Shown piece by piece: positions 4,413 to 22,133 of a stretch of DNA of 32,757 bases (its first letter is position 1; every line of letters begins with the position of its first letter). The notes beneath the pieces were generated by a model. That model saw only the letters and a program-made list of their open reading frames with translations, made no database searches and was not told where the DNA came from. The position numbers were made by a program, and so were the translations under genes. The stretch is from contig CAMBQC010000010.1 in NCBI GenBank assembly GCA_945869855.1, forward strand, positions 1 through 32,757. The letters run 5' to 3'. The stretch comes from Prosthecobacter debontii (GTDB lineage Bacteria; Verrucomicrobiota; Verrucomicrobiia; Verrucomicrobiales; Akkermansiaceae).

Positions 4413-5639
4413 ATGAGCAACCGTCTTGAAGGAAAAGTCCTAGTCGCCCAAGGTGGCGGCCCCACCCCGGTCATCAACCAGAGCATCGTCGGCGTTGCGC
4501 TGGAAGCCCGGAAATTCTCGCAGGTCACCTGCATCTACGGCGCGGTGCACGGCGTTTCCGGCATCATCAACGAGAACTTCGTCGATCTCACGCGGGAAAC
4601 GACCCACAACCTGGAACAGGTTGCCGGAACCCCTTCCTCCGGCCTACTCTCCACCCGCGACAAGCCCGACGAAGAATACTGCGCGCGCATGTTCGAGGTC
4701 ATGAAAGCCCATGATATCCGCTACTTTTTCTATGTCGGCGGCAACGATTCCTCGGACACCGTCCGCATCGTCAACGAGCAGGCGAAGGCCGCAGACTACG
4801 AACTCCGCGCGATCCACATCCCCAAGACCATCGACAATGACCTGATGGAAAACGACCACTGCCCCGGCTTCGGCTCGGCGGCGCGCTTCGTGGCTCAGGC
4901 GTTCATGGGCGTGAATCTCGACAACCGCGCCCTGCAGGGCGTCTACATCGGCTGCATCATGGGCCGCCATGCCGGCTTCCTCACCGCCGCCTCCGCTCTC
5001 GCGCAGAAATATTTCAACGACGGCCCGCACCTCGTCTATGTACCGGAGCGCCACTTCAAGACCGAGCAGTTGCTCGCCGACGTGGATCGCGTCTATTCGA
5101 AATACGGCATGTGCACCATCGCCGTTTCCGAAGGCATTTCCGACCCGGACGGCACGCCGATGATCGTGAAACTCCTCGGCAAGGAGGAGCGCGACTCCCA
5201 CGGGAACGTCCAACTCTCCGGCACCGGTGCCCTCGGCGACCTGCTCGCCGATACCATTCGCGACGGCCTCAAAATCAAGCGCGTGCGCTCCGACACCTTC
5301 GGCTACCTCCAGCGCTCCTTCATGGGCATCCAGTCGGACCGCGATGCCCGCGAAGCCCGCGAGGTCGGCGAGAAAGCCGTGCAATACGCAATGTGGGACA
5401 ACGTCGACGGCTCGGTCGCGATCAAGCGTCCCGTGCTCGATTACTCGGTCGATTACGAACTGGTGGATATCAAAAAAGTCGCCGGAAAGACCCGCCACAT
5501 GCCGGACAACTTCATCAACGAAGAGGGCAACGGCGTCACGCAGGATTTCATGAACTACTGCCGCCCGCTGCTCGGCTCCAACATTCCCGAGCCACACCGC
5601 CTCCGCGCACCCGCCGTCGCTAAAATTCTCAATCGCTGA
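4413..5639 (+). CDS. pfp: 6-phosphofructokinase, pyrophosphate-dependent type
   Basis: Glycolytic enzyme converting fructose-6-phosphate to fructose-1,6-bisphosphate in the cytoplasm; the sequence type suggests pyrophosphate rather than ATP as phosphoryl donor, which makes the step reversible. The 408-residue protein has the nucleotide/PPi loop GGGPTPVIN (14-22), GGNDSSDT (109-116) in place of the ATP-enzyme GGDGS, the catalytic PKTIDND (137-143) with the Lys characteristic of PPi users, and the sugar-phosphate motif MGRHAGFLTA (183-192). Donor specificity is inferred from these motifs. The gene is monocistronic: it starts divergently from the hypothetical gene and is followed by the inverted-repeat element. 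A purine-rich GGAGGTGA lies about 20 bases before the ATG, too far for a normal ribosome site. Confidence 0.88.
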   Translation: MSNRLEGKVLVAQGGGPTPVINQSIVGVALEARKFSQVTCIYGAVHGVSGIINENFVDLTRETTHNLEQVAGTPSSGLLSTRDKPDEEYCARMFEVMKAHDIRYFFYVGGNDSSDTVRIVNEQAKAADYELRAIHIPKTIDNDLMENDHCPGFGSAARFVAQAFMGVNLDNRALQGVYIGCIMGRHAGFLTAASALAQKYFNDGPHLVYVPERHFKTEQLLADVDRVYSKYGMCTIAVSEGISDPDGTPMIVKLLGKEERDSHGNVQLSGTGALGDLLADTIRDGLKIKRVRSDTFGYLQRSFMGIQSDRDAREAREVGEKAVQYAMWDNVDGSVAIKRPVLDYSVDYELVDIKKVAGKTRHMPDNFINEEGNGVTQDFMNYCRPLLGSNIPEPHRLRAPAVAKILNR

Positions 5640-5659
5640 ACACACCGTCCTTTTAAGAG

Positions 5660-5880
5660 CGTTTGCCCATTCGCGTCAATTTAAGGTGTAAGTCCGCAGC
5701 CTCGTTGATATAGCGATGATCGTTTGCGCTTACATCGCCTAATATGCTTGGGATATATCGGTATTTCTGACTTCAAGCTTCGCAATATGCGGAGTCACCC
5801 CGATAGCCATGTGTAGAGTTTTTCCGCGCTGATCTCTATGCGAGGTTTCCACTTTTTAAATTGACGCGAATGGGCAAACG
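5660..5880. repeat. Inverted-repeat element A (221 bp, 25-bp perfect ends)
   Basis: Bases 5660-5684 are the exact reverse complement of 5856-5880 (25 of 25), enclosing 171 bp of AT-richer sequence with no open frame. Inside are further pairings: CCTCG near the left end with CGAGG near the right, GCGATG with CATCGC around 5712-5737, and a local hairpin at 5778-5794 (CTTCGCA, loop ATA, TGCGGAG). As RNA or single-stranded DNA it would fold into one long branched hairpin. It begins 20 bp after the phosphofructokinase stop. No target-site duplication is obvious. Its ends (GTTTGCC inward, GGTCTA just outside on the right) resemble the element at 19902-20136. A non-autonomous mobile element or a large bidirectional terminator are the main readings. 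Confidence 0.8.
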
Positions 5881-6018
5881 GTCTAGTCCATTATGTTGTA
5901 ATGGTAATATTTCTGGCCCACCCCCGCTTTTTCAGGAGCCATGGGGCGCGGTTGCGTGAATGCCGCCTGAAAGCCGAGGTCGAGGAAGCCGGTAAGAGAA
6001 ATTAGGGAGAACGCAGCG
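5881..6018. other. Intergenic stretch with a small hairpin
   Basis: Holds a perfect 6-bp hairpin at 5888-5904 (CCATTA, loop TGTTG, TAATGG). A short plus-strand frame near 5940-6003 reads ARLRECRLKAEVEEAG, possibly the tail of a vanished gene, but it cannot be assigned. Nothing else is recognised. Confidence 0.3.
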
Positions 6019-6075
6019 TGTTTGGTTGCGGTTGACGATTACGACGCTTGCCAGGCGGCAGAGCTTGGTGAGGTT
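6019..6075 (-). pseudogene. Fragment of a YefM/Phd-type antitoxin gene
   Basis: Read on the minus strand this translates NLTKLCR then SVVIVNRNQT, matching NLTKLCRSGKRFVIANRNQP of the intact antitoxin at 6566-6817. At DNA level 22 bases at 6056-6077 are identical to 6762-6783. Only about 19 codons remain, with neither start nor stop, so it is a dead partial copy. It lies directly downstream of the VapC remnant. Confidence 0.75.
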
Positions 6076-6087
6076 CGGCTGCTGCGT

Positions 6088-6213
6088 TCAGCTGGGTTTC
6101 CAGAGCGGAACCAACTTTGATTTTCGGATCAGCCGGTGTTTGGTTGCCAAGGGCAACTTGAGTGCGTGGGCAGTGACAACGGTAAGGCGATCCGCCGGAT
6201 CCCGATGAAAGGA
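6088..6213 (-). pseudogene. C-terminal remnant of a VapC (PIN-domain) toxin
   Basis: Forty-one codons plus the natural TGA stop read as the end of a PIN-domain ribonuclease: FHRDPADRLTVVTAHALK, then LPLATKHRLIRKSKLVPLW. HRDPADR carries the conserved acidic residue of PIN active sites, and the closing pattern is typical of VapC tails. The N-terminal two thirds, with the first catalytic acids, are missing. The upstream edge joins directly, out of frame, to an antitoxin N-terminus (6212-6256), as expected after an internal deletion of a vapBC-like pair. Assignment rests on motif recognition only. Confidence 0.7.
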
Positions 6214-6256
6214 GGCACTTGGTCTTGAATTCCGTAGCGGTCACTGTTCGCTTAAT
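6212..6256 (-). pseudogene. N-terminal remnant of a Phd/YefM-family antitoxin
   Basis: The minus strand reads KRTVTATEFKTKCL, the characteristic first residues of a Phd/YefM antitoxin (usual form MKxVxATEFKxKCL). The expected initiator is ATT instead of ATG at 6254-6256. After KCL the frame is lost and the sequence continues as the VapC tail in another frame, so roughly the last 60 antitoxin codons and most of the toxin have been deleted. Confidence 0.65.
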
Positions 6257-6306
6257 GACCAGTGTATGTGACCAGTCAGGCAAAGGTAAACGAGGATGGC
6301 GTTGTG

Positions 6307-6585
6307 TCATTTCCCGCGCTTACCCAGAATCTGCTCGAAAAGTTCATAGATCACATCACGTGTGTTCGCGTATTCGAGGAGAATTTCCTTTCCTGAAATC
6401 TGACGGAAGATGATGCGGATGCCGCCGATGCGGAGTCGGTTGAATCCCTCAAGGTTTCCTTGCAATCCCTTGATGTCGCCCCTCCCTTTCGCCAAGGTGC
6501 GCAAGGCCGTGCGGACGCGGTGCTTGGTTTGCGGCGGCAGGGCGCAGAGCCAGTCAGCGACCTGATCAGAGGCCGAAATTTTCAT
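6307..6585 (-). CDS. RelE/ParE-family toxin
   Basis: A 92-residue type II toxin of the RelE/ParE superfamily. Members either cleave mRNA on the ribosome or poison gyrase; which one applies cannot be read here. Family features are the N-terminal helix pair (QVADWLCALPPQTKHRVRTAL), the GxxxxL-G-L core in KGLQGNLEGFNRLRIGGIRIIF, and the C-terminal strand-helix ANTRDVIYELF. Its start overlaps the upstream antitoxin by 20 bp, the usual arrangement for translational coupling, so antitoxin is made first. Remnants of other toxin-antitoxin genes begin 50 bp downstream. Confidence 0.85.
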   Translation of the reverse strand: MKISASDQVADWLCALPPQTKHRVRTALRTLAKGRGDIKGLQGNLEGFNRLRIGGIRIIFRQISGKEILLEYANTRDVIYELFEQILGKRGK

Positions 6586-6817
6586 CGTCGAGGTTCAGCG
6601 GCCGGTATTGGGTTTTGCCGACCTTGGCGGAGCGGATGGCGGTCATGGCGGCGGGATCGGCGAGGACATCCATGGTTTCCATGAGGGCTTCGAAATCCTC
6701 CACCGGCATCGCGACGACGACAGGTTGGTTGCGGTTAGCGATGACGAAGCGCTTACCCGAGCGGCAGAGCTTGGTGAGGTTCGCCTGCGCCTCCTTCATG
6801 TTGTACGTATCAGGCAT
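6566..6817 (-). CDS. YefM/Phd-type antitoxin
   Basis: An 83-residue antitoxin that would bind and neutralise the RelE-type toxin and autorepress the operon. YNMKEAQANLTKL is the DNA-binding N-terminal signature of the Phd/YefM family, followed by RFVIANRNQPVVVAM and EDFEALMETM; the C-terminal half (PLNLDDENFGL) would be the toxin-wrapping segment. The ATG at 6815-6817 was chosen over a longer frame because family homology begins there and because a promoter-like sequence ends exactly before it. The 3' end overlaps the toxin start by 20 bp. Confidence 0.85.
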   Translation of the reverse strand: MPDTYNMKEAQANLTKLCRSGKRFVIANRNQPVVVAMPVEDFEALMETMDVLADPAAMTAIRSAKVGKTQYRPLNLDDENFGL

Positions 6818-6852
6818 AGGTTTTGTATAGACGAAAAATGGGGCGGTAGCAA
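6818..6852 (-). promoter_or_regulatory. Predicted promoter of the antitoxin-toxin operon (leaderless)
   Basis: On the minus strand TTGCTA (6847-6852) is separated by exactly 17 bp from TATACA (6824-6829). Counting from that -10 element places the first transcribed base on the A of the antitoxin ATG, predicting an mRNA with no leader. Each hexamer matches four of six consensus positions, and there is no Shine-Dalgarno, which agrees with leaderless translation. Confidence 0.45.
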
Positions 6853-6871
6853 GGCGTGAGTTCAGAAAGAC

Positions 6872-6949
6872 GGAGACTGCAAGTCTCCCGGACGGACCCG
6901 CCTTCGCCAAGGCTAAGGACGGGCAGGCTGGGGACTGCAAGTCCCAGCC
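6872..6949. repeat. Hairpin cluster downstream of thrS
   Basis: Two hairpins share the core GACTGCAAGTC: 6872-6888 (7-bp stem GGAGACT/AGTCTCC, loop GCA) and 6926-6949 (GGCT plus GGGACT with AGTCCC plus AGCC, one bulged G, loop GCA). Between them GCCTT-CGCC-AAGGC forms a third stem. The cluster begins two bases after the thrS stop on the minus strand, so it could terminate or protect the thrS transcript; the repeated core also looks like a REP-type unit. Confidence 0.6.
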
Positions 6950-9105: not shown

Positions 9106-9390
9106 TCATTCCCACGCCACCGTTGGCGGGGTGGCCTAGTCGTTCCATATTTGGTCGAGGAGCTACTTGTCGGGTGCAGCGTCGAACGTGACGAAGCGGT
9201 ATTCGGAGCGGTATGCCTTGTCGTGTGTGATCTCCATGTCTCCCGCCATCTGCGGAGCGAAGCAAATGAACGGCTCCAGCGGGTGAACACGGATCGGCTG
9301 GGGCGCACGGAAATTTCCCGGATGGCCGCGGATCGGAGCAGATACACCAAGCGGAGCGGGAAGGGCTTTGAGATTTTCTGTTAGAGCCAT
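9106..9390 (-). pseudogene. Broken gene, C-terminal part of a DUF6807/PmoA-like protein (tentative)
   Basis: One minus-strand frame runs on through two TAG stops (9163-9165 and 9136-9138) while still reading like protein: GHPGNFRAPQPIRVHP, LEPFICFAPQMAGD, YRSEYRFVTFDAAPDK, then after the first stop LLDQIWND, then ATPPTVAWE before a third stop. The second stop sits where a Tyr would be expected (ND-Y-ATPP). The text resembles the end of the DUF6807 (PmoA-like) family, from memory only. The first possible ATG (MALTENLKALP) overlaps the vapC ATG by two bases on the other strand. The 279 bp between here and thrS hold nothing I recognise. Confidence 0.5.
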
Positions 9391-9790
9391 GAGGATCCTG
9401 CTCGATACGAACATCTGTATCTACGTGATGAACGACCGTCCGGCGCGTGTCGTCGAGCGGTTCAGGCATTACAAACTGGGAGATATCGGTGTGACGGCGA
9501 TCACGCTGGCGGAGCTCCAATTCGGTGTTTCCAAAAGCAGCCAGATCGAACGCAACCGCAGCGCCCTTTTCCGATTTCTGGCACCGCTTGATATCGTGCC
9601 TTTCACGGGCGAAGCCGCCGAGCATTACGGACAGATCAAGGCACAACTGCATGCGCTCGGGACGATGATCGGCGAACTCGATTGCCTGATCACCGCACAG
9701 GCGCTTTCGTTGAAACTCCCACTGGCCACCAACAACACTTCGGAGTTCGAGCGGATCGCTGATCTAGTTGTCGAGAACTGGGCGGAGTAA
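9389..9790 (+). CDS. vapC: VapC-type PIN-domain ribonuclease toxin, without visible antitoxin
   Basis: A 133-residue PIN-domain protein of the tRNA(fMet)-endonuclease VapC type. The Mg-binding acids are visible at D6 (ILLDTNICIY), E42 (LAELQFG) and D98 (IGELDCLITAQAL), with Asn in ATNNTSEFERI at the fourth position, as in many VapCs. It would arrest translation by cutting tRNA. ATG at 9389 was chosen because homology starts at RILLDTN; a start 21 bases upstream is possible. VapB is normally encoded just upstream on the same strand, but that space holds only a broken minus-strand gene, so the toxin looks orphaned. It converges on trmD with 17 bp between stops. Confidence 0.88.
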   Translation: MRILLDTNICIYVMNDRPARVVERFRHYKLGDIGVTAITLAELQFGVSKSSQIERNRSALFRFLAPLDIVPFTGEAAEHYGQIKAQLHALGTMIGELDCLITAQALSLKLPLATNNTSEFERIADLVVENWAE

Positions 9791-19848: not shown

Positions 19849-19901
19849 CTCGGAAATCCTAAAGAGGAAAACGAACCACGAATCCGACTTCACCGCCTAT
19901 C

Positions 19902-20136
19902 CCGTTTGCCAAAAGTCCGTGCGCAAAACTGTGACAACAAAGTAGAGTGCGCCGCAGGCTCTGGACTGCTGTGATTCTTCATTCAAAGCTCTCAAGGGCT
20001 GCTTTGTTTTACGGGACGAAGGGTTGCTACGGGATACTTCGTTTTTCCATCGCGAACCCAAAAAGCGGCAGATGAGAACCGCCGCAGTCAAAAGCCTCCG
20101 GCGGCATGGATCTGCGCACGGACTTTTGGCAGACGG
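19902..20136. repeat. Inverted-repeat element B (235 bp)
   Basis: Bases 19902-19925 pair with 20113-20136 at 23 of 24 positions (19 perfect at 19907-19925 and 20113-20131). A second, inner pair of arms near 19950-19980 and 20070-20105 is complementary at roughly three quarters of 28 positions (GGCTCTGGACTGC against GCAGTCAAAAGCC), so the whole element can fold as one long imperfect hairpin. It fills the gap between the convergent deacetylase and dprA genes. Ends match element A: GTTTGCC on the left, and GGTCTA just outside the right end in both. No open frame inside; no clear target duplication. Confidence 0.75.
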
Positions 20137-20169
20137 TCTAAAAATCGCAAATTCAGCCCCCTTCCCTTC

Positions 20170-21317: not shown

Positions 21318-22133
<816 letters not shown>

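What the first reader, a model, noticed from the sequence alone, without database searches (positions are those of the whole stretch)
5660..5880. 221-bp element with 25-bp perfect inverted ends and internal structure
The ends are perfectly complementary over 25 bp, and the interior holds further pairings, including a tight hairpin at 5778-5794. There is no open frame. A length and layout like this fits a MITE-like non-autonomous mobile element or a large structured RNA/terminator. It sits 20 bp after a gene stop.
Basis: seen in the sequence. Interest (0 to 1): 0.62.

Follow-up and report, generated by a model that had tools for sequence, protein, structure and literature searches.

The report
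Gutted jumping gene with inverted ends
The 221-base element is the shrunken remains of a bacterial jumping gene whose middle has been lost but whose two matching ends remain, sitting inside end sequences of a second kind of jumping element; this is an ordinary kind of event, with an unusually strict choice of landing site as the one interesting detail.

Summary
In detail: 5660-5684 and 5856-5880 are perfectly complementary over 25 bp, or 29 bp at 97%. The interior does not fold better than shuffles.

The element is an internally deleted IS4-family insertion sequence. A congeneric genome (G014, a Luteolibacter MAG) holds the full element: the same 25-bp ends 1404 bp apart around a 429-aa IS4-type transposase. 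The window copy keeps the first ~195 bp (87% identical), including the last ~60 codons of the gene on the minus strand with one stop, plus the far end; about 1.18 kb is missing. It is single-copy in its incomplete genome: MITE-like in build, not shown to be an amplified MITE.

The 25-bp repeat is composite. The true IS ends are CATTCGCGTCAATTTAA (5668-5872). The outer 8 bp belong to the target, the end motif TAGACCGTTTGCC of an IS630-type family with a 243-bp copy at 19898-20140. All 16 distinct ends of this IS type that I could compare abut such a sequence (control 32 of 20,000). In the window the two target halves are inverted, not duplicated, which is only partly explained.

A known kind of thing. 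Structured RNA or terminator is not supported.

The parts
5668..5872 (-). internally deleted copy of an IS4-family insertion sequence (205 bp between true IS borders; strand is that of the transposase remnant)
   Evidence: aligned with the intact 1.4-kb copy G014:C64; borders set by 10-bp direct repeats outside CATTCGCG in other copies
5668..5684 (+). left IS terminal inverted repeat, CATTCGCGTCAATTTAA
5856..5872 (-). right IS terminal inverted repeat, same 17 bp
5684..5863 (-). remnant of the transposase C-terminus (residues 368-427 of 429, 75% identity, one TGA); the match runs a few bases into the right repeat
5850..5858 (.). deletion junction: IS position ~196 joined to ~1379, about 1.18 kb missing
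   Evidence: alignment; exact base not fixed, the junction bases are ambiguous
5655..5667 (+). left target half, AAGAGCGTTTGCC, 11 of 13 to the IS630-type end TAGACCGTTTGCC
5873..5885 (-). right target half, TAGACCGTTTGCC on the minus strand, 13 of 13; inverted relative to the left half
4413..5639 (+). upstream neighbour: phosphofructokinase-family gene
   Evidence: PF00365
19898..20140 (.). 243-bp short element of the IS630-type family whose end motif is the target of the IS

Best explanation
It is a dead, internally deleted copy of an IS4-family insertion sequence. Inferred history: a ~1.39-kb IS inserted into an IS630-type end sequence downstream of the phosphofructokinase gene; about 1.18 kb of its interior, most of the transposase gene, was then lost between IS positions ~196 and ~1379. 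Both terminal inverted repeats and the last ~60 codons of the transposase remain. Without a transposase the copy could move only if an intact relative supplied the enzyme in trans. Shown: ends, deletion, transposase remnant, relatives, 10-bp duplication in relatives, target association. Inferred: order of events, deletion in place rather than transposition of an already shortened form, loss of mobility.
For: Intact copy in G014 with the same 25-bp ends 1404 bp apart and a 429-aa IS4-family transposase (NF033592 E=2.6e-48). Window element = left ~196 bp of it at 87%, gap, right end. Transposase remnant with a stop. Further partial copies in G014 and G056. Perfect 10-bp direct repeats around three assembled relatives.
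Against: No direct target duplication around the window copy itself (3 of 10 direct, 9 of 10 inverted). No intact IS of this type in the own genome, which is 80% complete. No second genome carries the same deletion, so nothing dates it.
Confidence: 0.9

Rival explanations
1. A true MITE: the 205-221-bp deleted form is itself mobile and was spread in trans by the IS4-type transposase, arriving here already shortened.
For: Both ends are perfect, which transposition would need. Short relatives with the same kind of ends exist: a 403-bp element with a 10-bp direct repeat in G054:C265.
Against: One copy in the own genome, none of this form in other genomes. No direct repeat at this site.
Confidence: 0.12
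2. A chimeric mobile unit: IS4 body with inverted IS630-type end motifs and TA outside, mobilised as a whole by the IS630-type transposase.
For: Window and G014:C64 both have inverted TAGACCGTTTGCC-like halves; in C64 both sides end in TA, in the window only the right side.
Against: Only the outer 11-13 bp are shared with the IS630-type ends, which are at least 24 bp long in that family. Other copies show ordinary 10-bp duplications at IS4 borders.
Confidence: 0.06
3. A structured RNA or a transcription terminator of the phosphofructokinase gene.
For: Position 20 bp after a stop codon; a transcript would form a 25-29-bp stem.
Against: Interior folds like shuffles; hairpin pairs not kept in relatives; no Rfam match reaching threshold; no terminator-like site within the element; element absent after the same gene in the 10 other orthologous loci printed.
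Confidence: 0.03

Closest known systems
IS4 family, subgroups with CA(T) ends: IS231, ISH8, IS4Sa (PMC2266710, section 6 and Table 1 read)
   Same: DDE transposase with Y(2)R(3)E(6)K, single ORF, ~10-bp target duplications; the window's end CATTCGCGTCAATTTAA fits the IS231 end pattern CAT-------AA--TAA
   Different: Intact relatives are 1386-1397 bp between borders, a little below the listed IS231 and ISH8 ranges; host is not the B. cereus group; subgroup not tested by a tree; the window copy is deleted
IS231A in Tn4430 and IS231U/F/L in other class II transposon repeats (PMC1626470, passages)
   Same: IS4-family element inserted in the terminal repeat of another transposon
   Different: There the target is a Tn3-type (class II) repeat and the IS sits just before its last base; here an IS630-type end about 13 bp in
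IS5075/IS4321, hunters of Tn21-type terminal repeats (PMC8269217, abstract and passages)
   Same: Strong preference for terminal repeats of another element family
   Different: IS1111-type enzymes (per a reference title in that paper), not IS4 family
Bacterial MITEs as a class (review PMC10969869, search listing and start of abstract only)
   Same: Short, transposase-less, inverted ends shared with an autonomous IS
   Different: Single copy; no evidence that the deleted form has moved

Membership tests
IS4 family (for the parent element) | IS4-type DDE transposase with Y(2)R(3)E(6)K in a single ORF | tested here: met
   NF033592 above cut-off for G014 and G029 copies; motif read in the ORFs; feature as stated in PMC2266710
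IS4 family (for the parent element) | target duplication of about 10 bp | tested here: met
   10 of 10 direct in G029:C239, G021:C11 and the short G054:C265 element; not met in G014:C64 (2 of 10), G105:C81 (6 of 10) and the window copy (3 of 10)
IS231 subgroup of the IS4 family | ends CAT-------AA--TAA and transposase grouping with IS231 | tested here: inconclusive
   The window-type end fits the pattern in Table 1 (comparison by eye); no transposase tree was made
MITE | short, no transposase, terminal inverted repeats shared with an autonomous element | tested here: met
MITE | several copies of the short form / evidence that it moved | tested here: not met
   One copy in the own genome (80% complete); not found in other genomes
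IS630-type family (for the target and 19898-20140) | IS630 transposase between the same kind of ends | tested here: met
   G000:C21:16412-17234: ends TAGACCCTTTGCC / TATACCGTTTGCC around a transposase remnant, NF033545 E=6.4e-32 above cut-off
IS630-type family (for the target and 19898-20140) | TA target duplication | tested here: inconclusive
   TA at both borders of the assembled pairs; no empty site was compared
Structured RNA family | match to a covariance model or conserved pairing | tested here: not met

The most novel reading that the evidence does not exclude
In this genus an IS4-family element has become a strict parasite of IS630-type element ends, and insertion there yields chimeras (IS4 body bounded by inverted IS630 end motifs and TA) that either transposase might mobilise; the window element would be a gutted member of that chimeric lineage, and the 26-bp palindrome in G005:C137 its empty or pre-insertion site.
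Probability: 0.08. Interest if true: 0.5.

Novelty: new member of a known kind. Interest (0 to 1): 0.27.

Why it matters
The finding itself is ordinary: a decayed insertion sequence. What a mobile-DNA specialist may like is the target choice: all 16 distinct ends of this IS type that could be compared abut an IS630-type end motif, which would make the genus a natural system for studying how an IS4-family transposase picks the ends of other transposons, as described for IS231 in class II transposon repeats. It also warns that a perfect terminal repeat read by eye can be part IS, part target.

Tried and rejected
Structured RNA: Rfam at gathering threshold over the whole window gave nothing, and the relaxed scan of 5300-6320 gave only two sub-threshold matches, both outside the element; interior folding not beyond shuffles. 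Terminator: only one weak terminator-like site in 5500-6400, at 6095-6112, outside the element. Plasmid and phage records: no match to the 221 bp. tRNA: none in the window. A 25-bp IS end: rejected because other copies have different outer 8 bp and 10-bp direct repeats that start right outside CATTCGCG.

Explanations weighed for the inverted target halves in the window and in G014:C64: (i) recombination between two IS copies inserted in the two opposite ends of one IS630-type element, which would give exactly this junction; (ii) insertion into a palindrome with loss of the duplication, or excision leaving one, since a 26-bp palindrome of this kind occurs unoccupied in G005:C137; (iii) a chimeric mobile unit; (iv) assembly error, unlikely in two separate assemblies. 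I prefer (i) but could not decide.

Literature searches found precedents for IS231-type insertion in transposon ends; the one search naming Luteolibacter had zero occurrences of that word in the eight papers it listed of 2,408. I do not claim that the matter is absent from print.

Full report
What is there. The window carries a 25-bp perfect inverted repeat, 5660-5684 against 5856-5880, 29 bp at 97% when one mismatch is allowed, 20 bp after the stop of a phosphofructokinase-family gene. The whole 221 nt folds better than all 200 shuffles, but the 171-nt interior does not stand out (z = -1.0 as RNA, +0.1 as DNA). The small hairpin at 5778-5794 is real, but in the two relatives compared it keeps 5 of 7 pairs; its sequence is part of a transposase gene there.

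Relatives. In the own genome (1.96 Mb, 136 contigs, 80% complete) the full element occurs once. Among 73 genomes searched in the genus, 4 including its own match at E <= 0.001: G000, G014, G056 and G009. In a 386-genome sample of the order, 3 match at E <= 1e-5, all in the genus. G014 and G056 could be named because the transposase search in genome contigs returned contigs of the same lengths: JAJTHK010000093.1 (32,006 bp, MAG Luteolibacter sp. CoA8N_E16) and CAMCYT010000031.1 (16,907 bp, MAG labelled Prosthecobacter debontii) (compared). That search confirmed 4 loci of 15 candidate stretches. No plasmid or phage record matches.

The parent element. G014:C64:4753-6156 has the same 25-bp ends 1404 bp apart and between them, on the minus strand, an intact 429-aa ORF. 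It matches the IS4-family transposase model NF033592 at E=2.6e-48, above cut-off, and PF01609. G029:C239 carries a second, 40%-identical transposase between related ends. Both show Y(2)R(3)E(6)K, the IS4-family signature given in PMC2266710 (passages and section 6 seen). Aligned with the G014 copy, the window element is the left ~196 bp (87% identical), then a gap of about 1.18 kb, then the right end. The only match to the transposase in the own genome is this remnant: residues 368-427, 75% identity, one TGA. This is an internally deleted insertion sequence.

True borders. A genus-wide pattern scan for CATTCGCGTCAAYTTA (one mismatch; 14 of 73 genomes with a match; reversed control 1 match in all) and the fetched flanks show that the IS begins at CATTCGCG. 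Three assembled copies have perfect 10-bp direct repeats just outside: G029:C239 GGCCGGGTCC, G021:C11 TCAAAATACC, and a 403-bp short element in G054:C265, CCCTGCCGGG. A 115-bp candidate in G105:C81 does not (6 of 10), nor do G014:C64 and the window. Contig-end halves in G014 and G056 pair up by eye with 10-bp repeats (C71/C46 GGCATACGGT; C123/C90 GGCAAACGGT; G056 C118/C83 ACTGGTTGCC), but that two halves belong to one copy is inference.

What the target is. TAGACCGTTTGCC occurs with up to one mismatch 20 times in the own genome (reversed control 4), 23 in G014 (control 8), 11 in G009 (control 5) and 4 in G056 (control 3). Extended to TAGACCGTTTGCCAAAAGTCCGTGCG with up to 3 mismatches there are 10, 15, 9 and 1 (controls 0). 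In the own genome these ends bound elements of 243, 243, 244 and 124 bp, one of them in this window at 19898-20140. A copy at G000:C21:16412-17234 holds an IS630-type transposase remnant between such ends (NF033545 E=6.4e-32). The target is therefore the end of an IS630-type family with TA at its borders. In ten other same-genus genomes the motif is not clearly above its control (for instance G005 10 vs 5 and G051 14 vs 6, but G057 3 vs 19 and G001 2 vs 12), so the family seems concentrated in a few genomes.

How strict the targeting is. Over all distinct IS ends in the fetched loci (36, deduplicated by 25 bp of flank, at least 40 bp of flank needed), 16 abut an IS630-end-like sequence (at least 9 of 13 in one orientation or 8 of 10 in the other) against 32 of 20,000 random positions. 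These 16 are exactly the 16 ends with the window's end type CATTCGCGTCAATTTAA; none of the 20 other ends passes. Caveats: part of the loci were brought in with a query that includes CGTTTGCC, although the pattern scan that does not include it returned the same places. The threshold was chosen after seeing the flanks. Some ends are halves of one copy, so the 16 are not independent. One further end in G056 (C31, 7 of 10) misses the threshold, although its flank continues like another copy of the family in G056:C179 (by eye).

The unexplained part. In the window and in G014:C64 the two target halves are inverted (9 of 10 and 10 of 10 matches as inverted repeat, 3 and 2 of 10 as direct repeat) rather than duplicated. 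Recombination between two IS copies sitting in the two opposite ends of one IS630-type element would produce this exactly; that is inference. A 26-bp palindrome that differs by one base from the two halves of G014:C64 put side by side occurs unoccupied in G005:C137 (comparison by eye), which leaves open insertion into such a palindrome or excision from it. G005, the genome with the most similar phosphofructokinase (98%), has TAGACCGTTTCCC about 33 bp after the stop of that gene, perhaps an old trace of the same target; this is a single short match.

Orthologous sites. Of 59 genomes searched, 30 have the gene at E <= 1e-50. I gave 16 of these 30 loci to the script; 11 were located by its marker peptides and printed (the window's own and ten others), and none of the ten others has the element after the gene.

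Known or new. IS4-family elements that land inside terminal repeats of other transposons are known: IS231A in Tn4430, and IS231U, IS231F and IS231L in other class II repeats (PMC1626470, passages). IS5075 and relatives in Tn21-type repeats are another case (PMC8269217, abstract and passages). The ends fit the IS231 pattern CAT-------AA--TAA in Table 1 of PMC2266710; the subgroup was not tested by a tree. The window element is a new member of a known kind. Its interest is low to moderate and lies in the strict target choice of its parent.

Noticed in passing
window 19898-20140: A 243-bp short element of the IS630-type family (TATCCCGTTTGCCAAAAGTCCGTGCG ... GGTCTA), with further copies of 243-244 bp in G000:C16 and G000:C39; a better MITE candidate than the element asked about.
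   Followed up: partly
L205 257-660 (G054:C265:32957-33359): A 403-bp element with CATGCGCGTCAACTTA ends and a perfect 10-bp direct repeat, CCCTGCCGGG; G054:C140 has an end with the same flank.
   Followed up: partly
L235 around 1487 (G005:C137:3014-3039): Unoccupied 26-bp palindrome TAGACCGATTGCCGGCAAACGGTCTA, one base from the two target halves of G014:C64 side by side.
   Followed up: partly
window 6307-6940 (minus): Likely toxin-antitoxin pair: Phd/YefM-type antitoxin (6569-6940, PF02604 E=4e-10) next to a 92-aa ORF with no Pfam match, shortly downstream of the element.
   Followed up: partly
window 9368-9790 (plus): PIN-domain protein (PF01850 E=5.2e-21), possibly a VapC-type toxin.
   Followed up: no
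window 21318-22133 (minus): ORF with a long proline-glutamate repeat (PEPEPEP...), whose opposite strand is also open as glycine-serine and tryptophan-leucine repeats.
   Followed up: no
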